64,000 nt of DNA from Halomonas sp. I5-271120 (lineage in GTDB: Bacteria; Pseudomonadota; Gammaproteobacteria; Pseudomonadales; Halomonadaceae). This document shows positions 12,997 through 42,924 of this stretch, one piece after another. Numbering within the stretch: the first letter of the stretch is position 1; each line of letters opens with the position of its first letter. A program made the position numbers and the translations under genes. The notes under the pieces are model-generated. The model was given only the letters and a program-made list of their open reading frames with translations, had not been told where the DNA came from and did no database searches. The stretch lies in contig NZ_CP130701.1 of NCBI RefSeq assembly GCF_030553075.1, positions 1,612,001 through 1,676,000 of the forward strand, written 5' to 3'.

Positions 12997-14094
12997 ATGA
13001 CACCGCTCCACGACGCGCCCCAGGGGCAACGCATACTGGTCGTGCGCAACGACAAATTAGGCGACTTCATGCTCGCCTGGCCGGCGTTAGCCTCTCTCAA
13101 GCAGGCGCATGCCGGTAACCACATCAGCGTGCTGGTGCCGGAATACACGGCGCCACTGGCGCGGCAGTGCCCCTGGATCGATGAGGTGATTCTGGACCCG
13201 GGCGATTCCGGCGATCGGCACGCCCAGGCGCAACTGCTGGCTCGCATGCGCAAGGGAAATTTCAAGGCCTTACTGACGCTGTATTCCACACCGCGCATCG
13301 GCTGGCTGGGATGGCGATCGGGCATTCCCATGCGCCTCGCCCCAGCCACCAAGTGGGCACAGATCTTTTACCATCACCGCATCACCCAGCGGCGCTCACG
13401 CTCACAAAAGCCCGAGTACCAGTACAACCTGGACCTGGCCGAGGCCCTGCTTATCCGTCTTGGGCAGCCGGTGCCTGCCGCCCTAGCGCCGCCTTACTGG
13501 CCACTGCCGCAGGACGAACGACGAAGGCAGCGCCAACACCTGAAGGATGAACTCGACCTGATGACAGAGCGCTCCTGGGCCTTCCTGCATGCCGGCAGCG
13601 GCGGCTCGGCGGTCAACCTGACCCTCGAGCAGTATGCCTCCCTGGCGGGAAAGGTGGATGCGCGCCTCACCGAGGCGCAGGCCGCGGCTCCCCTGTGGCT
13701 GCTGACCTGTGGCCCGGGCGAGGAGGACACCGCCACCGCGCTCTGCAAGCGACTGACCGATCAGGACAGCGATGCCGTATTCGTGCCGCCTCGCCAAGGG
13801 CTCACCGACTTTGCGCTGAGCCTCGCCGCGGCCGACCTGTTTATTGCCGGATCAACCGGCCCGCTGCATATTGCCGGTTGCCTGGACCTGCCGACGGTCG
13901 GATTCTATCCGTCCAAGCGCTCCGCGACGCCGCTGCGCTGGCAGACCTGCAACCGTGAGCGGCATCGCCTCGCCTTCTGCCCCCCTGCCGATGCCGGCAG
14001 CGACACCGACATGTCGCGCATCGACTTGGACGTCGCCGCCGCGGAGATCAGCCAGTTTCTCGATCGCCGGAAGGCGCAGTCGTTCGAGTCCTGA
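12997..14094 (+). CDS. Glycosyltransferase family 9 (heptosyltransferase family)
   Basis: The 365-residue GT-B protein opens RILVVRNDKLGDFMLAWPALASL, a GT9 signature. A C-terminal AADLFIAGSTGPLHIAGCLDLPTVGFYP forms the nucleotide-heptose binding region. It differs from the OpsX-like and WaaF-like proteins of the locus, so it likely adds another core heptose or related sugar. Its 3' end overlaps the convergent waaE-like gene by 47 bases, an unusually long tail-to-tail coding overlap. Confidence 0.86.
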   Translation: MTPLHDAPQGQRILVVRNDKLGDFMLAWPALASLKQAHAGNHISVLVPEYTAPLARQCPWIDEVILDPGDSGDRHAQAQLLARMRKGNFKALLTLYSTPRIGWLGWRSGIPMRLAPATKWAQIFYHHRITQRRSRSQKPEYQYNLDLAEALLIRLGQPVPAALAPPYWPLPQDERRRQRQHLKDELDLMTERSWAFLHAGSGGSAVNLTLEQYASLAGKVDARLTEAQAAAPLWLLTCGPGEEDTATALCKRLTDQDSDAVFVPPRQGLTDFALSLAAADLFIAGSTGPLHIAGCLDLPTVGFYPSKRSATPLRWQTCNRERHRLAFCPPADAGSDTDMSRIDLDVAAAEISQFLDRRKAQSFES

Positions 14095-36096: not shown

Positions 36097-36771
36097 ATGA
36101 ATCATCCAGGCACTTCAATCCTGCTCGTCACAGACTGCAACCCGCAGTCTCAGCTCTTCATCAACTATATCCATGAGCAGTTGGAGGAGACGGTCACTGC
36201 CCTGCCGCCGGATGCACAGGTCATTCCAGAGGGCAGTAGCAAGAACATCGTATTGCTGGACATGAATCATGTGGCCGAAGAGGCCATTCAGCAATGGCAC
36301 AACCTGTCACTGGAGGATGAGACCGTGGTACTCGCGGCCCTGAACCTTCGCGACGAGGATCACGCTGCAGACTTACTGGCTGCCTTCCACCTGCAGGGCG
36401 TTTTTTACCGTAACGATAGTTTGCTGTTGACCTGCAAGGGGATCAATCGACTCATCGAAGGCGACCTTTGGATGTCGCGTAGTCTGATGGCACGCCTGAT
36501 AAACTTCTACCGGCAGCAGCAGCGCAATGCGTATCGCCCGGTTTGCGGGCTGACGCACCGTGAAATGGAAATCATCAGCCTGCTGAGTTCTGGTGCCTCT
36601 AATACCGATATCGCCGACAAACTGTTTGTCAGCGAACATACCGTGAAGTCTCATCTTTACAATATTTTCAAGAAAATCAAGGTCCACAATCGTATTCAGG
36701 CAATGAACTGGGCACGACAGAACCTGGCGACCAGCCCTGCCCCATTAAAAAAAATTCTCAAAGGCGCTTGA
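36097..36771 (+). CDS. CsgD-like LuxR-family transcriptional regulator
   Basis: The 224-residue protein has an N-terminal receiver-like domain, with the conserved strand and Asp in NIVLLDM (D55). The C-terminal LuxR HTH is LTHREMEIISLLSSGASNTDIADKLFVSEHTVKSHLYN, spanning residues 152-189. GVFYRND, GASNTDIADKLFVSE, HLYNIFKKIKVHNRIQAMNWA and the overall length resemble E. coli CsgD, the curli and cellulose regulator. Usual phosphorylation residues of a receiver are incomplete, as in CsgD. No curli csgBA or csgEFG genes are in the window. It is followed after 56 bases by a VpsR-like activator and probably regulates the exported-fibre locus. Confidence 0.8.
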   Translation: MNHPGTSILLVTDCNPQSQLFINYIHEQLEETVTALPPDAQVIPEGSSKNIVLLDMNHVAEEAIQQWHNLSLEDETVVLAALNLRDEDHAADLLAAFHLQGVFYRNDSLLLTCKGINRLIEGDLWMSRSLMARLINFYRQQQRNAYRPVCGLTHREMEIISLLSSGASNTDIADKLFVSEHTVKSHLYNIFKKIKVHNRIQAMNWARQNLATSPAPLKKILKGA

Positions 36772-36827
36772 GCAAAGACCCCAAATAGCCGGCTTTACCT
36801 TCGTTTTTAAAGATAAAGGTGAATCGA

Positions 36828-38264
36828 ATGGACTCACCTGAGTTCTTCATTTTCCCTCAGGAATGCTCTCCACATATTCAGGAGAAGCTTCATATTCTCA
36901 AGGAAAAGGGCTGGGTAGGCATTTCATCTGCTGAGCTGGCAGTCAAGTCACAGAGCGATGAAAGTGACATACCTATCGGACTGATACCTATCTTCAGCTC
37001 TGATGAAGGCGTGCTATCTGCGATTGAAGAGTCCATCAATGCCTATCCAGATGTAGAATGGGTCGGATGGCTGAGATCTGGATCGTCTTCTTTAGAAGAT
37101 AATGCTGTACTCGAGACGTTTATATTACGCAATCTTTTCGTCTTTCACGAGCAACACGATTCCACTGAAGACATTATCGTTTCATTAGTTCGCTGCAAGA
37201 CAATGTCAATGTTAAGGAAATCAAATAGTGGAAGAAGCCCTCGCGAGGGAATGAAGCACGGTAGCATGTTACAAATGTTGGGGAACACAGCCTCGATGCA
37301 GGGGCTTTTTTGTAACATCAAAAAAGTGGCCGCAGTCGATGCTCCAGTGTTTATTAATGGCGAGTCCGGAACAGGGAAAGAGCTGACAGCCAGAAGCATT
37401 CACGAGATTTCATTACGTAGAAATGGCCCTTTCAATGCTGTCAATTGTGGTGCCTTGCCGACCCACCTTATTCAATCCGAGCTTTTTGGCCATGAAAAAG
37501 GGGCCTTTACAGGAGCGGTGAAACGCAAGATTGGACGCATCGAGGCAACTCAAGGAGGAACGCTTTTCCTAGATGAAATAGGGGACCTGCCGCTCGAAAT
37601 GCAGGTTAATCTTTTACGATTTTTAGAAGATCATAAGATACAGCGCATTGGTGATACAGCTGAAATATCAGTAGATGTAAGGGTATTAGCGGCGACTCAT
37701 GTCGATCTTAACAAGGCAATAGAAGAAGGAAAGTTCCGAGAGGATTTATATCATCGATTAAATGTACTACATATCTCAGTACCACCCTTGAGAGAACGCA
37801 GCCAAGATATTGGACTTATATCCGACCATTTCTTCAATAAATTTTCAGGTGAGGCTAGCACCAGGGCCCGTGGCTTCAGTCAGGATAGCAGAGCCGTGAT
37901 GCAGCAATATCAGTGGCCAGGCAATGTCAGGGAGCTCATCAACCGTGTGAGGCGCGCTACGGTGATGTGTGAGCATCGTTTAATTGCGCCTGAAGATTTG
38001 GGGCTGGAACGACGCAGTCATGACTGGCGAGAGCCGCTCACCCTGGAAAAGGCCCGCGAGATGGCCGAGCATGAAGTCATCAATGCCGCTTTGGTCAGAA
38101 ACAAGTATAAGGTGCAAAAAGCAGCCAAGGAGCTTGGTGTTTCCCGTGTAACGCTCTATCGCTTGATGGAGAAGCATCATCTTTCTCGTCATGCTTCCGA
38201 AGGAAGTCAACCCAAAAAAACCACCTTTGAACCTTCCAGCATAATAAAGCTATCCTCTTTATAG
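36828..38264 (+). CDS. Sigma-54-dependent activator, VpsR-like
   Basis: The 478-residue protein has an N-terminal atypical receiver-like domain (1-130), including VEWVGWLRSGSSSLEDNAVLE, similar in layout to VpsR of Vibrio. The AAA+ domain carries Walker A GESGTGKE (178-185), an intact GAFTGA (225-230) and Walker B GGTLFLDEIG (243-252). A Fis-type HTH, AAKELGVSRVTLYRLMEKH, lies near the C-terminus. Unlike V. cholerae VpsR, the GAFTGA loop should allow contact with sigma-54. I choose the ATG at 36828 (AAGGTGA ribosome site) over the GTG at 36819. Coding DNA is clearly AT-richer than the surroundings, suggesting transfer. Confidence 0.85.
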   Translation: MDSPEFFIFPQECSPHIQEKLHILKEKGWVGISSAELAVKSQSDESDIPIGLIPIFSSDEGVLSAIEESINAYPDVEWVGWLRSGSSSLEDNAVLETFILRNLFVFHEQHDSTEDIIVSLVRCKTMSMLRKSNSGRSPREGMKHGSMLQMLGNTASMQGLFCNIKKVAAVDAPVFINGESGTGKELTARSIHEISLRRNGPFNAVNCGALPTHLIQSELFGHEKGAFTGAVKRKIGRIEATQGGTLFLDEIGDLPLEMQVNLLRFLEDHKIQRIGDTAEISVDVRVLAATHVDLNKAIEEGKFREDLYHRLNVLHISVPPLRERSQDIGLISDHFFNKFSGEASTRARGFSQDSRAVMQQYQWPGNVRELINRVRRATVMCEHRLIAPEDLGLERRSHDWREPLTLEKAREMAEHEVINAALVRNKYKVQKAAKELGVSRVTLYRLMEKHHLSRHASEGSQPKKTTFEPSSIIKLSSL

Positions 38265-38278
38265 TGGTTAGATAACTC

Positions 38279-38299
38279 ATTATTTTCAATAATTTTTTT
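38279..38299 (+). terminator. Possible weak terminator after the VpsR-like gene
   Basis: An AT stem (ATTATT / AATAAT) with a 3-base loop runs into seven T's just after the stop. The stem is weak. Confidence 0.35.
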
Positions 38300-38482
38300 A
38301 TCCTCGGCGTAAATTCCTTGAGGCCGGCTATAGATGAACTAAGCTTGCCTAAGGGTATGTAAGAAAATAAGCATTCATCATTAGCTAGCACATCATACCT
38401 AACGCGAGCAAACCAACATGATCGAGTCCAAGCGATCAAAACGTTGTTGGGGTCAAAAGGGCTGAAAGGCGAGGGGACGACT

Positions 38483-39559
38483 ATGCACGAGATGACCAAA
38501 AGGGTGATCGTTTTACCCAGTCTGTTAACAATGATGGTGGCTGGATCCTCATATGCCCAGACATCTGACGATCAGAGCATGGAGCAGGTAGGGCAGCCGC
38601 CTCCTGCACAGGAAACACAGCCAGAAATTCAGTCTATTCCCGATATCGGCGGGGTACTAACGCCTCAAGGTCGGTTTGTACTAGAGCCGGAATTTCAGTA
38701 CTCACACTCCAGCGTCAATCGACTGACTTTCCGGGGTATCGAAATACTCAGCACTCTGCTGGTCGGCGCCTTGTATGCCGAGGATGTTGATCGGGACACC
38801 TGGACGACGTCGCTCACTGGACGCCTGGGGGTGACCAACCGTCTGGAGCTCGAGCTCAAGGTGCCTTATGTCTACCGCGAGGATACGGTTAATAACACCA
38901 TCGCAGAGGTCACTCCTTCTACTAACCTGACCAGCTCTCGCTCCGGGGATGGCTTGGGCGATATTGAAGTCGCTGCCCACTACCAGCTCAACCGTAATCT
39001 CGATGGCGGTCCCTTCTACATCGGTAACCTGCGCTACAAGTCAACAACTGGCAAGAGCCCCTTCGAGATCGACCGTACTGATGTTGGAATAGAGCGTGAA
39101 CTGGCCACAGGTTCAGGCTTTCACTCTATCGAACCCAGCCTTACTATCCTGTTTCCGTCAGACCCGGCCGTCTACTTTGCTAACATCGGTTATCTTTATA
39201 ATATCAAGGATGACGTCAATGAAAGAATCGGGGACTTCGTCATCGGTGAGGTGGATCCCGGTGATGCCATTCGCCTGAGTTTCGGGATGGCCTACTCTAT
39301 CAACCAAAAGTCGTCCTTCACGCTAGGTTATAAGAACGATTTTATTGGTAAAACTGACACAGAGTTCACCAACCCTGATACCGGGGTTACTACTACACAG
39401 ACGGGGGCATCACTTAACATCGGCTCTATGCTACTTGGATGGTCCTACCAGCTTGATCCCGATGTCGCGCTGAGCTTGAACCTTGAGTTCGGTATCACTG
39501 ACGATGCTCCCGATACCACACTGACGCTACGTGCTCCTTTTGGTTTTGATATGTTCTGA
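38483..39559 (+). CDS. Outer-membrane beta-barrel protein (FapF-like transporter candidate)
   Basis: The 358-residue exported protein has a signal peptide ending SSYAQ (about residue 25). A Gln/Pro-rich linker (TSDDQSMEQVGQPPPAQETQ) precedes DIGGVLTPQGRFVLEPEFQYSHSSVNR. Alternating amphipathic strands to a C-terminal Phe (FGFDMF), the BAM recognition signal, follow. It belongs to a family of barrels annotated only as transporter or outer-membrane protein. FapF fills this place in Pseudomonas fap operons, though the FapF coiled-coil plug is not evident here. The start follows GAGGGGA; an upstream frame extension lacks a signal. It is convergent with the exported-protein operon. Confidence 0.7.
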   Translation: MHEMTKRVIVLPSLLTMMVAGSSYAQTSDDQSMEQVGQPPPAQETQPEIQSIPDIGGVLTPQGRFVLEPEFQYSHSSVNRLTFRGIEILSTLLVGALYAEDVDRDTWTTSLTGRLGVTNRLELELKVPYVYREDTVNNTIAEVTPSTNLTSSRSGDGLGDIEVAAHYQLNRNLDGGPFYIGNLRYKSTTGKSPFEIDRTDVGIERELATGSGFHSIEPSLTILFPSDPAVYFANIGYLYNIKDDVNERIGDFVIGEVDPGDAIRLSFGMAYSINQKSSFTLGYKNDFIGKTDTEFTNPDTGVTTTQTGASLNIGSMLLGWSYQLDPDVALSLNLEFGITDDAPDTTLTLRAPFGFDMF

Positions 39560-39583
39560 TAAAAAGGGTTGTTGATAAAAAAA

Positions 39584-39610
39584 GAAAAGGCCTTCATAGA
39601 AGGCCTTTTT
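39584..39610. terminator. Bidirectional terminator between the barrel gene and the fibre operon
   Basis: GAAAAGGCCTTC and GAAGGCCTTTTT pair around a 3-base loop, with A-runs to the left and T-runs to the right. It can end both convergent transcripts. Confidence 0.85.
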
Positions 39611-39656
39611 CATGTGTAAAAATTGAAAATTTCATATATCCATCAAAGGTTAGACC

Positions 39657-40310
39657 TTAAAAGCGTTCGAATGACCGCATGATTGCTGCCTGAGCCTGTG
39701 AGGCTTGAAGCACTTCCGCGTTTCTCAACGTCACACTGACATCAATACTCTGGGATATATTCTGCCCGGAACCATTACTGACAACGGCACTGATGATGGC
39801 ATTTCTGGTGATATTATGAAGTGCCGCCGTAAAGCTGCCTGCATCTGAAAAAGCCACCCCTGAAAAGTCTGCAAGCCCTGCCAGGTTGAATGTCTTTGGG
39901 GCAACCTGAGTAACGGACGTGCCATTAGGGCTGATGCTGGTGACATTGGGTGACAGGTTGGAAATTTCCTCTGAGACGACATTGATGCCGGACTGGCTAA
40001 AAGCCAATTGAGTCTTCATGCGAACCATGCCATCGATTTTGGTCTGCAAGGTCGCACCGAAGTCCACATCAACACCGCCAATCGAGAAGCCACCACGCAA
40101 TTCTTCCATATCATCCAAGGGGATGATGTCTGCATGGGAGTTCGTATAGATATCTTCATCAAGCGGTGACGTAGTTGCCTCGTGCAGAATCAAGCTCTCT
40201 GCTTCCACTGTGGCAGGCACTAACACAAGGCCTGCCAATACCAACGCTGTCAGGGCGCTTCCATGCAACTTGCGATAGCCCCCCTTTTTGATGCTCCTTG
40301 ACGCTTCCAT
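39657..40310 (-). CDS. Exported protein with a double-glycine motif (FapE-like position)
   Basis: The 217-residue protein has an N-terminal signal (hydrophobic ALTALVLAGLVLVPATVEA, cut near residue 37). LDDMEELRGGFSIGGVDVDFG lies across residues 65-85, where LDDMEELRGG resembles a double-glycine leader end. An amphipathic region with Asn-, Ser- and Val-rich strands follows (NVTSISPNGTSVTQV, QNISQSIDVSVTLRN). No enzymatic motif is visible. It is the last gene of the operon, 77 bases after the C39-type peptidase, with a GGAG ribosome site. A minor fibre component or export partner is a reasonable guess; homology to FapE is not established. Confidence 0.65.
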   Translation of the reverse strand: MEASRSIKKGGYRKLHGSALTALVLAGLVLVPATVEAESLILHEATTSPLDEDIYTNSHADIIPLDDMEELRGGFSIGGVDVDFGATLQTKIDGMVRMKTQLAFSQSGINVVSEEISNLSPNVTSISPNGTSVTQVAPKTFNLAGLADFSGVAFSDAGSFTAALHNITRNAIISAVVSNGSGQNISQSIDVSVTLRNAEVLQASQAQAAIMRSFERF

Positions 40311-40387
40311 GGTTTGCCACTCCTGTAGTGATAAACCGCTGCTCAGTAGTAAGGGGCCTGGTTAATAGCCAGTTACATCGTAGATAA

Positions 40388-41086
40388 CTAGCGCCCCAGC
40401 TCATTGCGCCCCGGCAGCGGCAACATGGCCGAACCGATCGCCGAGCGCTGCATACCTCTTTGGAGAGGAGAATCTGGTCTGACTTGCCAATCACGATCGT
40501 TATTGAAATACTGTTTTGCCAGCAGCATGTCTTCGCGAGCGCCTAGCACGGTTCCCGTCCATAGCGTCTCGAAATGTTCCTTGGGAACCACCACGGTGCC
40601 AACCGCCGGATCGCCGACCAACACGTTACCGTCGTCCATTCCCTTGATCACCACGAAATGCTTGTATCCGCCCGTATTGATCAGGGTAATGGCAGGTAAT
40701 CCAATCCCGATAAAATCTTCAAGTTTCACACGGAAACCATCAGAATTAAGACCCTGTGAATCCAAGTACTGCTTCATGTCAAGCATGGAAAAGCCATAGG
40801 TGCGGATCTTATCCACATCACCAAGCTTAATCATCGATTCGAAAACTTCGGCTTCGGAAGTAGGGCGCTCATAATGATAGGTCAGCAATGTCGCGACGGC
40901 TGCGGAACCACAACTGAAGTCATACTGCTGACGTACCACGTTCTCCCAACGTAATTCATTGAGACTTTCAGCCTTGACCTGGAAAGAACCGAAGGGGTTG
41001 GCAATTGTTACGGGGCCAGCCAAAACAGGTTGAGCCGCTAGACTCAAAAAAGCAGCTATCACTGCTGAACGAAAAAACATCGACAT
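40388..41086 (-). CDS. Exported C39-type cysteine peptidase (FapD-like)
   Basis: The 232-residue protein has a signal peptide (MSMFFRSAVIAAFLSLAAQPVLA, two short blocks) followed by a stand-alone C39 domain. RQQYDFSCGSAAVATLL carries the oxyanion Gln (53) and the catalytic Cys (59). GYKHFVVIKG has the His (143) and VLVGDPAVG the Asp (159). Unlike bacteriocin exporters it has no ABC transporter or membrane domain, so it should work in the periplasm, as proposed for FapD. The TTG one codon upstream is less likely than the ATG at 41086, which follows GGGGGAGAG. Confidence 0.85.
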   Translation of the reverse strand: MSMFFRSAVIAAFLSLAAQPVLAGPVTIANPFGSFQVKAESLNELRWENVVRQQYDFSCGSAAVATLLTYHYERPTSEAEVFESMIKLGDVDKIRTYGFSMLDMKQYLDSQGLNSDGFRVKLEDFIGIGLPAITLINTGGYKHFVVIKGMDDGNVLVGDPAVGTVVVPKEHFETLWTGTVLGAREDMLLAKQYFNNDRDWQVRPDSPLQRGMQRSAIGSAMLPLPGRNELGR

Positions 41087-41135
41087 CAAACTCTCCCCCT
41101 TTTGATATCATCGCTACCAATCAATGGCGTAACCA

Positions 41136-41540
41136 TCACTGGGGGTTTGCGATGTAAACACTTATACCGACCGCACCACTCACGGCATTGGCATTGCCCG
41201 TCGTGATGTTGAACACACCGACACCGCTGTAACTATTCAGGGAGTCTGCCTGGATGTTGACACTACCTGTTACGACATCACCGGAGACATTGAAACTGGT
41301 CGTGTCCACCGATGTATCAATGTTCTGGATACTCTGTACATTGGTGAGGTTAATGCCTTCCCGTCCTCTTGCTTCCTGCATTTCTTCCATGCCGAGACTA
41401 TTACTATCATCGAAGCCGGTAGAGGTAGATGAAGCGGAGGCGTCGGCATAACTCAATTGACTCATACCGGTAGCAGCGACTAGCCCAACACCGATGAGGA
41501 TTGCTTTGTACCGAGGCAAAGAAACACGGACTGCGCACAT
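41136..41540 (-). CDS. Small exported protein with GREG-type motif (putative minor fibre subunit)
   Basis: The 134-residue protein has a signal peptide (KAILIGVGLVAATGMSQLSYA, cleavage near residue 32). A motif LGMEEMQEARGREGINL (49-65) recalls the LDDMEELRGG segment of the last operon gene. A beta-prone tail follows (FNVSGDVVTGSVNIQAD, GVGVFNITTGNANAVSG) and ends YIANPQ. The FNITTGNAN block is similar to NMNVSTGIYN near the C-terminus of the glycine-rich protein encoded just upstream. It has no cysteine after the signal. Function is inferred only from position and pattern. Confidence 0.65.
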   Translation of the reverse strand: MCAVRVSLPRYKAILIGVGLVAATGMSQLSYADASASSTSTGFDDSNSLGMEEMQEARGREGINLTNVQSIQNIDTSVDTTSFNVSGDVVTGSVNIQADSLNSYSGVGVFNITTGNANAVSGAVGISVYIANPQ

Positions 41541-41580
41541 GGCCTGGCACTCCTTGCTATGAAGACTCTTGATGAGCAAT

Positions 41581-41609
41581 GGGCTGGCGGAGCAAGCCCC
41601 GCCAGCCGT
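41581..41609 (-). other. Intercistronic hairpin after the glycine-rich gene
   Basis: GGCTGGCGG and CCGCCAGCC form a strong stem with no U-run after it on the minus strand. Placed between the first and second operon genes, it could stabilise the upstream message and so raise output of the glycine-rich product. Confidence 0.5.
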
Positions 41610-41666
41610 TATCAGTTACTGCTCAGGAGGAGTTCGTTCCGACGTCATGCCGGTCGAACCCAACCC

Positions 41667-42794
41667 TCAGTTGCCGATGTTGACGTTGCTGTGCGCTGCC
41701 ACGTTGGTCCCGGCCAGCTGGGAGTTGTAGATCCCGGTCGAGACGTTCATGTTGGCGATGCCACCGAAGTTGCCAGCCGCGACATTCACGTTGGCTGCGC
41801 CGGTGCTCAGCAGAGCCGCTCCGCCAGCGCCGCCGGCACCACCAGCTCCACCGTTACCGGTAGCAGCCGTTGCGGCTCCGCCAGTGCCAGTGCCGCCGCC
41901 GCCGCCGCCGCCGTTGCCTGCACCGCCGCCGCCGGTTGAGGCAGTTGCAGCAGCGCCGTTACCGCCGGCCCCACCGGTGCCTGTGCCAGAACCAGTCCCA
42001 GCACCGGTGCCGTCACCAGAAGAGGCATTCCCGGCTGTCGCACCCGAGCTGGACCCATTGTCAGACCGGCTGGTCTGGGTGCTGCGAGACATATCTTCAT
42101 CGTTGTAGCTTGAGGCAAGACCACCCGCCATAGAGCCAGAGCCGGCTTCAGATTCGGCTTCGCCACTAGCGCCTAGCCCCATGCCTACGCCCATCCCGCC
42201 GGCATCGCCGCCAGCAGCACCGTTACCACCATTGGCATCGGCATAGCCACTCTTGCCACCGGTGCCGTTGCCACCTTCACCGCCAGCACCCAGCCCCAGG
42301 CTAATCGCACCCGCATCACCGCTGACGGCGCCAGCACCACCAGCTGCGCCACGGCCACCGGTGACATTGATACGAGAACCTGTCACGGAAGAACTCATAT
42401 CCTGCAGCGAGATAACGCTGGTGGAAGTGTTGTAGGACTCGCTCATGGACCAAGCGTCACCACCGCGACCGGTAGTACCACCTGCACCACCCAAGCCAGT
42501 GCCAGACCCTGAACCGCCAGTACCACCAGCGCCGGCATTCAGACCTGAGGTGTTATTCCTATCGTCCAAGTCCAGGCTGCTATCGGAATCACCGCCTGAG
42601 GAGCTGCCCCCAAAGCCCATTCCAAAGCCTCCCCCCCCATTGGCGCTGCCGCTGCTGCCGCCAACTGACGTAGCATTTGAATTAACCGTCTGGTCTGCTC
42701 TCTCGGCAACACCTGCACTCGGGTTGGCGTGTGCAGCGGAAATCGCCATTACCAGGGCTAGCATTGATGTACCTGCGATTACATAATTCTTCAT
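41667..42794 (-). CDS. Exported glycine-rich protein (candidate major fibre/amyloid subunit)
   Basis: The 375-residue protein has a signal peptide ending AISAAHA (cut near residue 23). Long Gly/Ala/Ser/Thr tracts (GAGGTGGSGSGTGLGGAGG and, nearer the end, NGGGGGGGTGTGGAATAATG) follow. These are broken by short non-repetitive segments such as WSMSESYNTSTSVISLQDMSSS. The last ~45 residues change to an Asn/Val pattern, AANVNVAAGNFGGIANMNVS then TGIYNSQLAGTNVAAHSNVN, typical of stacked beta segments. No cysteine is visible. Composition and position suggest a secreted structural polymer; an adhesin coat is the main alternative. The ATG at 42794 gives the signal peptide, and a longer frame to 42854 does not. 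A sigma-54 promoter lies upstream. Confidence 0.7.
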   Translation of the reverse strand: MKNYVIAGTSMLALVMAISAAHANPSAGVAERADQTVNSNATSVGGSSGSANGGGGFGMGFGGSSSGGDSDSSLDLDDRNNTSGLNAGAGGTGGSGSGTGLGGAGGTTGRGGDAWSMSESYNTSTSVISLQDMSSSVTGSRINVTGGRGAAGGAGAVSGDAGAISLGLGAGGEGGNGTGGKSGYADANGGNGAAGGDAGGMGVGMGLGASGEAESEAGSGSMAGGLASSYNDEDMSRSTQTSRSDNGSSSGATAGNASSGDGTGAGTGSGTGTGGAGGNGAAATASTGGGGAGNGGGGGGGTGTGGAATAATGNGGAGGAGGAGGAALLSTGAANVNVAAGNFGGIANMNVSTGIYNSQLAGTNVAAHSNVNIGN

Positions 42795-42909
42795 GACCGT
42801 TTCTCCACTCTGGATATGATCCCTTGCTTCTCGCTGCGAACCATGACTCGTCAAAGAACCTGTAGCGGTCAGTGGCTGGCGACATTCATTCGCAGTCGTT
42901 ATTCACAGG

Positions 42910-42924
42910 GCATAATGCGTGCCA
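42910..42924 (-). promoter_or_regulatory. Sigma-54 (-24/-12) promoter of the fibre operon
   Basis: On the minus strand TGGCACGCATTATGC matches TGGCACG-N4-TTGC with a single mismatch, and GG and GC are separated by exactly 10 bases. The predicted start is near 42898, giving a ~100-base leader to the glycine-rich gene. The sequence TATCAGGAAATAA at 42958-42970 matches the IHF consensus with one mismatch, at the distance usual between a sigma-54 promoter and its activator sites. Confidence 0.62.

What the first reader, a model, noticed from the sequence alone, without database searches (positions are those of the whole stretch)
36097..42924. Putative secreted fibre / functional-amyloid system with biofilm-type regulators
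Six genes form a self-contained unit: a CsgD-like regulator, a VpsR-like sigma-54 activator, an outer-membrane barrel, a glycine-rich exported protein, two small exported proteins and an exported stand-alone C39 peptidase. Barrel plus exported C39 peptidase plus exported low-complexity proteins is the logic of Pseudomonas fap operons, but gene order, lengths and the glycine-rich main protein differ, no FapA-like chaperone is evident, and the regulators resemble those of curli and Vibrio polysaccharide. The block is partly AT-rich and lies in the segment separating mnmE from mnmG. It could be an undescribed fibre family.
Basis: partly seen in the sequence, partly recalled or inferred. Interest (0 to 1): 0.85.

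Follow-up and report, generated by a model that had tools for sequence, protein, structure and literature searches.

The report
Fap-like fibre exporter with double-glycine leaders
A salt-loving bacterium carries a gene set related to the Pseudomonas amyloid-fibre exporter but with different secreted proteins, and its parts suggest where a puzzling secretion protease cuts its target.

Summary
The gene set is real and conserved. Seven genes of an Onishia genome (Halomonadaceae) encode a VpsT/CsgD-type regulator, a sigma-54 activator, a FapF-type barrel, a Sec-exported FapD-type C39 peptidase, a Gly-rich exported protein and two small exported proteins. A sigma-54-type promoter precedes the Gly-rich gene. 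It is a FapD/FapF system but not a fap operon: its peptidase lies in a supported group apart from the Fap group, and no FapB, FapC or FapE model matches. The new point: the exported protein beside the peptidase carries a bacteriocin-style C39 leader, E-[LM]-x-x-[LM]-R-[GA]-G|F, placed after the Sec signal. R(-3) and G(-1) are invariant in 120 of 120 listed homologues. The same element, ending G-R or G-K, occurs in FapE of 18 of 18 loci that I class as fap and of 7 of 7 FapE over the NCBIfam cut-off. I infer that this is the FapD cleavage site, which Rouse et al. 2017 called unclear. Cleavage, fibre formation, and any amyloid nature of the Gly-rich protein are not shown; the Gly-rich protein has no more Fap-type repeats than its shuffles.

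The parts
36097..36771 (+). LuxR-type regulator with VpsT-like receiver and WMSR motif (c-di-GMP motif of VpsT, recalled)
   Evidence: 21 of 21 homologues keep the motif
36819..38264 (+). sigma-54 activator with intact GAFTGA at residue 228
38483..39559 (+). FapF-type outer-membrane barrel with signal peptide
   Evidence: NCBIfam FapF 1.1e-45; profile against solved FapF 7.3e-96 (the profile holds true FapF rows)
39657..40310 (-). 217-aa exported protein in the FapE position, with C39-type leader
   Evidence: no family; 120 listed homologues; model
40089..40124 (-). leader element of the 217-aa protein, residues 63-74 (IPLDDMEELRGG); predicted cut after G74
   Evidence: inference for the cut
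40388..41086 (-). FapD-type C39 peptidase with signal peptide; Q54, C60, H144, D160 in the numbering of the ORF from 41089
41136..41540 (-). small exported protein, FapB-like repeat in its tail (ORF open from 41579)
41361..41396 (-). leader-like element of the small protein (ends EMQEARGR); predicted cut after it, less sure
41667..42794 (-). Gly-rich exported protein, presumed main secreted subunit (ORF open from 42854)
   Evidence: function inferred from place
42909..42924 (-). sigma-54-type promoter TGGCACGCATTATGCC ahead of the Gly-rich gene
   Evidence: shuffle p 0.01

Best explanation
This is a FapD/FapF-type export system for an extracellular, probably fibre-forming matrix protein, in a lineage apart from Fap. 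A VpsT/CsgD-type regulator, probably responsive to c-di-GMP, and the sigma-54 activator switch on the promoter at 42909-42924, which drives Gly-rich protein, small protein, C39 peptidase and 217-aa protein; the barrel is read from the other strand. The exported proteins pass the inner membrane by Sec. In the periplasm the peptidase cuts the 217-aa protein after R-G-G74, and probably the small protein after A-R-G-R, removing a disordered pro-segment with its leader helix. The trimmed proteins and the Gly-rich protein leave through the FapF-type barrel; the small FapB-like protein may nucleate and the Gly-rich protein form the bulk. Shown by sequence: gene set, homology of peptidase and barrel, leader, promoter-like site, co-occurrence. 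Inferred: cleavage, order of steps, c-di-GMP control, fibre. I infer further that FapE of the classical Fap system is cut by FapD at the matching place, after [LM]-x-x-[LM]-R-G-[RK].
For: Peptidase and barrel nearest FapD and FapF; nearest solved peptidase is a double-glycine-motif protease domain, 5e-15; catalytic residues invariant in 14 of 14. A barrel lies on the fetched stretch in 137 of 143 C39 loci. Leader: 120 of 120 listed homologues; a matrix trained only on the halomonad family marks at least one exported ORF near the peptidase in 73 of 108 loci outside the Halomonadaceae, where about 3 hits among 301 candidates were expected. Strict motif just after the peptidase gene: 28 of 30, 15 of 18 (fap), 37 of 81 (other) against 5 of 602 background ORFs. 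Bona fide FapE: 7 of 7. Models put the element where disorder ends. Sigma-54 site: 20 of 30 loci at p 0.05 or less. FapB-like repeat; tail beats 300 of 300 shuffles.
Against: No fibre or cleavage has been seen. Matches to FapD and FapF are under NCBIfam cut-offs (138 against 330; 156 against 700), though fap loci miss theirs too. Mature 217-aa domain and mature FapE are not shown to be homologous (hhalign 0.6%). 25 of 81 other loci lack even the loose motif at the FapE position and 12 of 81 lack it at both; Fil-like loci lack it in 12 of 12. In 4 of the 15 fap loci L067-L081 no ORF passes the matrix threshold. The -1 residue of the small protein and of FapE is Arg or Lys, not Gly. The published gap in FapE peptides reaches about residue 70, the predicted cut lies near 40. 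Leader helix and site have low pLDDT (block means 55 and 65). Background ORFs come from one genome, and loci of related species are not independent.
Confidence: 0.6

Rival explanations
1. An ordinary fap operon that has drifted: Gly-rich protein a worn FapC, small protein FapB, 217-aa protein FapE.
For: Same kinds of peptidase and barrel; small protein FapB-like; leader at the same place.
Against: Fap peptidases form one side of a branch with support 100/99 and the window lies in another group, 96/97; genomes G016 and G024 hold both kinds at separate loci; FapB, FapC and FapE models do not match here but match L067.
Confidence: 0.2
2. The system exports a surface coat or adhesin, or a polyglycine-type (non-amyloid) fibre, by the same machinery.
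For: Gly 29% in the window's protein and 20-36% in the related rows; no Fap repeat beyond chance.
Against: FapB-like small protein; at this place 41 of 101 loci outside the Gly-rich type hold a protein with a Q-N-rich repeat found by pattern.
Confidence: 0.35
3. The R-G-G element is a docking signal for peptidase or barrel and is not cut.
For: Some C39 domains are inactive and only bind substrate (PMC5135000, passage).
Against: Catalytic residues intact in 14 of 14; catalytic Cys of FapD is needed for secretion and FapE lacks N-terminal peptides (PMC5557850).
Confidence: 0.15
4. The block is a curli system or part of one.
For: CsgD model 3.1e-43.
Against: The genome's CsgG gene, beside proteins that look like curli subunits, lies about 1 Mb away; barrel and C39 are not curli parts.
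Confidence: 0.03

Closest known systems
Fap system (fapABCDEF) of Pseudomonas; FapF structures 5o65, 5o67, 5o68
   Same: Sec-exported C39 peptidase, trimeric-type barrel family, FapB-like small subunit, a leader-bearing protein right after the peptidase gene, sigma-54 activator nearby (18 of 19 fap-group loci).
   Different: Separate peptidase group; Gly-rich protein in place of FapC; no FapA match; leader ends G-G, not G-R/G-K; barrel on the other strand.
FapD/FapF pairs outside Fap, noted in PMC3792158 (larger families) and PMC6173800 (co-located in five more phyla); passages seen
   Same: This block is one of that wider family.
   Different: Those passages describe no leader, subunits or regulators for them.
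Fil system of Acinetobacter (FilB, FilC models)
   Same: C39 plus barrel pair.
   Different: Weaker matches; Fil-like loci lack the R-G motif in 12 of 12.
Double-glycine leader peptides with C39 domains of PCAT/AMS exporters (6mpz, 4ry2)
   Same: Leader order and peptidase family.
   Different: Here peptidase and substrate are exported by Sec and no ABC transporter is present in the block.
Curli (csg)
   Same: CsgD/VpsT-type regulator.
   Different: No curli structural gene in the block.

Membership tests
Fap | FapF-type barrel | tested here: met
   NCBIfam 1.1e-45, under the cut-off of 700 bits at 156; profile hit to solved FapF
Fap | FapD-type periplasmic C39 peptidase | tested here: met
   3.7e-40, under cut-off; but outside the Fap group in the tree
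Fap | FapC/FapB with Fap repeats | tested here: not met
   No NCBIfam match at E 0.1; minimal repeat p 0.17. Small protein has a FapB-like repeat by own profile, E 0.005
Fap | FapE | tested here: not met
   No NCBIfam match (the model does match L067 and L025); mature domains not shown homologous. Same place and leader
Fap | FapA (absent in some Fap systems) | tested here: inconclusive
   No match to any window protein, but the FapA-position protein of L067 also matched no NCBIfam model, so none may exist
Fap | Amyloid fibres of the major subunit | not testable with these tools
   needs the bench
Fil | FilB and FilC over cut-off | tested here: not met
   127 against 475 and 85 against 630 bits
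C39 double-glycine peptidase and substrate | Catalytic Q, C, H, D | tested here: met
   14 of 14 rows
C39 double-glycine peptidase and substrate | Leader with hydrophobic -12, E -8, L/M -7, hydrophobic -4, G -2, G -1 (consensus recalled) | tested here: met
   217-aa family; in the small protein -1 is Arg
C39 double-glycine peptidase and substrate | Cleavage at the site | not testable with these tools
   needs the bench
Curli | CsgG pore and curlin repeats in the block | tested here: not met
   No such Pfam match; CsgG lies elsewhere in the genome
VpsT/CsgD regulators | VpsT-like receiver, W[FLM][ST]R, LuxR HTH | tested here: met
VpsR | Match to VpsR itself | not tested
   GAFTGA is intact, which VpsR is recalled to lack

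The most novel reading that the evidence does not exclude
A Proteobacteria-wide class of matrix-protein exporters, sister to Fap and wider than it, works by 'Sec first, double-glycine cut second': a periplasmic C39 peptidase trims a FapE-like gatekeeper, and often a FapB-like nucleator, at a bacteriocin-type leader, and this licenses export of a freely varying low-complexity subunit through a FapF-type pore. Classical Fap is one branch, in which the residue before the cut became Arg or Lys and so hid the site.
Probability: 0.55. Interest if true: 0.82.

Novelty: new variant of a known kind. Interest (0 to 1): 0.7.

Why it matters
Rouse et al. 2017 state that the FapD target is unclear and that Fap proteins lack canonical C39 sites (PMC5557850, section 8); a 2025 review says FapD is thought to process FapE and FapF (PMC12822426, passage). 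The window's relatives keep an orthodox G-G where FapE has G-R or G-K, which names one peptide bond to test. It links bacteriocin leaders with amyloid secretion, and points to systems that screens keyed on FapB/FapC repeats (as described in a passage of PMC12822426) would be likely to pass over.

Tried and rejected

Counting caveats. ORFs were taken without a gene finder. L028 (an ABC exporter) was dropped from the later counts, L096 (broken frame) from the counts. The 18 'fap' loci are my own class (L024-L026, L067-L081): by FapD score, place and, in the loci that I read, FapB/FapC-like repeats; I did not read L077, L080 and L081 in that way, and NCBIfam FapE was run on L067 and L025 only. 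L036 was added to this group for the tree (19 rows) and for the sigma-54 count. L077's FapE was missed and found by a direct look. L120 and L124 have the 217-aa gene by tblastn but no motif in the ORFs called; not followed up. In one search one of 23 FapE segments ends G-A, probably a mis-picked site, and L212 was missed by the pattern (it shows MADLRGR). One search found 136 homologues and listed 120; only those were counted. The repeat was collected by a pattern, so its consensus is partly built in. For one search, five Halomonadaceae loci with short fetched or unlisted majors (L016, L017, L019, L108, L109 among them) gave no row.

Papers. PMC5557850: section 8 read, other passages. PMC6173800, PMC3792158, PMC5135000, PMC12822426, PMC3684753: passages only. 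All others: search listings. That the leader in FapE is not in print rests on the listings alone; supplements and bioRxiv were not seen, and Supplementary Fig. 18 of PMC5557850, said to mark GG/GA motifs in FapE, could not be viewed.
Full report
WHAT IS THERE. The window comes from a genome closest, among the named records found, to Onishia taeanensis USBA-857 (C39 99% identical). Seven genes fill 36097-42854. Two regulators and a barrel lie on the + strand; on the - strand, in the order of transcription, lie the Gly-rich protein, the 147-aa ORF, the C39 peptidase and the 217-aa protein. Signal peptides are read by eye from the sequences of the last four and of the barrel. The block is poorer in GC than its flanks except inside the Gly-rich gene.

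FAMILIES. NCBIfam puts the barrel nearest FapF (1.1e-45), then FilC (5e-24), and the peptidase nearest FapD (3.7e-40), then FilB (7.1e-37), all under the curated cut-offs; the 217-aa, 147-aa and Gly-rich proteins match nothing in Pfam or NCBIfam at E 0.1. The cut-offs are no fair judge: with the FapD model 0 of 369 genomes pass them, though fap loci are among the hits, and FapE, FapB and FapC of L067 miss theirs as well. A profile of 21 barrels, true FapF rows included, finds the solved FapF chains at 7.3e-96. The best solved match of the peptidase profile is a double-glycine-motif protease domain of an AMS/PCAT transporter (5e-15); Q54, C60, H144 and D160 are invariant in 14 of 14 rows.

CO-OCCURRENCE. 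The peptidase has a match in 12 of 38 relatives searched at E 0.001, some of them of the Fap, Fil or ABC-exporter kind. In 5 of 5 same-genus relatives the whole block sits between rdgB and a kinase gene plus hemL. Over 30 Halomonadaceae loci of this type the C39, barrel, 217-aa, 147-aa and sigma-54 activator genes are found in 30 of 30 by tblastn, the LuxR gene in 20 of 30 and the low-complexity Gly-rich gene in 25 of 30. The five without a tblastn match (L110, L111, L117, L122, L126) show a Gly-rich ORF with the conserved kind of tail, where 29 of 32 Gly-type rows have it (not L124, whose ORF is in a wrong frame, L132 and L133). A class-wide survey with the FapD model gave 45 of 369 genomes. 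In the pooled set a barrel lies on the fetched stretch in 137 of 143 C39 loci.

LINEAGES. In a tree of 118 peptidases (140 before removal of near-copies) the 19 rows that I class as Fap form one side of a branch (100/99), the 18 Halomonadaceae rows another (100/95), and these 18 with 69 other rows a third (96/97); the 12 Fil-like rows need two changes and some are long-branched. Genomes G016 and G024 hold both a fap operon and a window-type block at separate loci, G024 two fap operons in tandem. So this is not merely a fap operon that has drifted.

THE LEADER. In the 217-aa family all 120 listed homologues (of 136 found) have R at -3 and G at -1, G (81) or A (39) at -2, and L, M or I at -4; -7 is L or M in 118, the other two being gaps. 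Over 83 distinct segments -12 is I, L or M in all, and -8 is E in 48. This is the order of the double-glycine leader of bacteriocins (LSxxELxxIxGG, recalled). It lies some 25-35 residues after the likely Sec cleavage site. In the model, block means of pLDDT are 40-46 to residue 60, 55 and 65 over 61-80, and 80-92 from 81 on; a helix spans 65-72 and strands begin at 75, so that the predicted cut after G74 falls where disorder gives way to fold (mean pLDDT 72, pTM 0.55).

Is it general? A matrix built only from the 53 distinct 8-mers of that family was run on exported-looking ORFs within 1.7 kb of the peptidase. Outside the Halomonadaceae 73 of 108 loci hold at least one above the 99th percentile of 294 background ORFs, where about 3 of 301 candidates would be expected; within, 29 of 34. 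With a fixed strict motif just after the peptidase gene the counts are 28 of 30 (Halomonadaceae), 15 of 18 (fap), 37 of 81 (other) and 0 of 12 (Fil-like), against 5 of 602 background ORFs; with a looser one 28, 17, 56 and 0, against 27 of 602. The small protein upstream of the peptidase has the loose motif in 24 of 30 and 35 of 81. Either place has it in 69 of 81 other loci, so 12 have neither. The mature 217-aa domain is related to the G-G proteins of other families (hhalign 96.1%, 3.7e-9).

FAPE. In the fap loci the protein after FapD has the same element ending R-G-R or R-G-K: 17 and the eighteenth, L077. NCBIfam names it FapE in the two tested. A search with the FapE model over 390 genomes of the order gave 14 places in 13 genomes, 7 over the cut-off; all 14, and so all 7, show the element, for instance L-K-D-A-E-M-A-E-L-R-G-R|Y ending at residue 40. 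The 7 lie in family f16, which I take to be Pseudomonadaceae. A model of a halomonad FapE shows disorder to about 50, a helix at 51-63 over the element (site at 60) and strands from 67. Among the 15 fap loci L067-L081 the FapE ORF passes the matrix threshold in 11, and no other exported ORF in reach does; Rouse et al. report that FapE alone lacks N-terminal peptides. Their gap reaches about residue 70, so it fits the predicted cut near 40 but does not fix it, and they also consider cleavage of FapF. I could not show that mature FapE and the mature 217-aa domain are homologous; what is shared for certain is place, leader and partners.

CONTROL. A sigma-54-type site, TGGCACGCATTATGCC, lies at 42909-42924 (- strand) ahead of the Gly-rich gene; the best such site beats base shuffles at an uncorrected p of 0.05 or less in 20 of 30 loci. 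The activator has GAFTGA (74 of 91 homologous stretches). The LuxR-type regulator has WMSR, and 21 of 21 homologues keep the motif. From this I infer c-di-GMP input and sigma-54 output; neither was tested.

SUBUNITS. A repeat model built from small proteins of loci that are neither halomonad nor fap finds FapB-position proteins of fap loci at up to 1.5e-6 and the window's small protein at 0.005, best background 1.8; its tail beats 300 of 300 shuffles. The Gly-rich protein is the open part. In 41 of 101 loci outside the Gly-rich type a pattern search finds a protein in that place ending in a Q-N-rich repeat; the window's tail is different though conserved, and likeness between the two is weak. 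Amyloid, polyglycine-type fibre or coat: undecided.

VERDICT. A new variant of the FapD/FapF kind. [quoted passage not shown] The weakest is the nature of the fibre.

Noticed in passing
L223:6840-10015 (G000:C1, about 2.677-2.680 Mb): A curli-like cluster in the same genome: CsgG (2.5e-58) beside ORFs that look by eye like CsgF, CsgB, CsgH and CsgA. No csgD-like gene was seen in the ORFs listed; the window's CsgD/VpsT-type regulator could serve it.
   Followed up: partly
L067:11749-12168, L069:11767-12081, L075:7530-7868, L025:12269-12703, L026:11623-12069: Fap loci often start with an extra exported protein of about 104-148 aa, ahead of the FapA place, with a leader-like [LI]xx[ILV][RSNV]G element and, in most, the word VILWDE: a possible seventh fap gene.
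   Followed up: no
L025 (G024:C78:1-18000): Two fap-type units in tandem in one halomonad genome, each with its own C39.
   Followed up: no
L099, L101 (Fil-like loci): Short exported proteins near the peptidase carry [QE][LM]DxxxAG right after the signal, perhaps an A-G form of the same leader.
   Followed up: no
L021:3533-6610, L022:11198-15213, L023:11039-13783: Two sigma-54 activator matches each; L022 also has a short barrel-like remnant at 13630-13923: signs of a duplicated and decaying block.
   Followed up: no
A4, residues just before the catalytic Cys (QQYDFSC in the window): Tyr there in the G-G-type peptidases, Thr in the four Fap-type rows, whose substrates end G-R/G-K. It could bear on specificity but is confounded with the two groups.
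   Followed up: no
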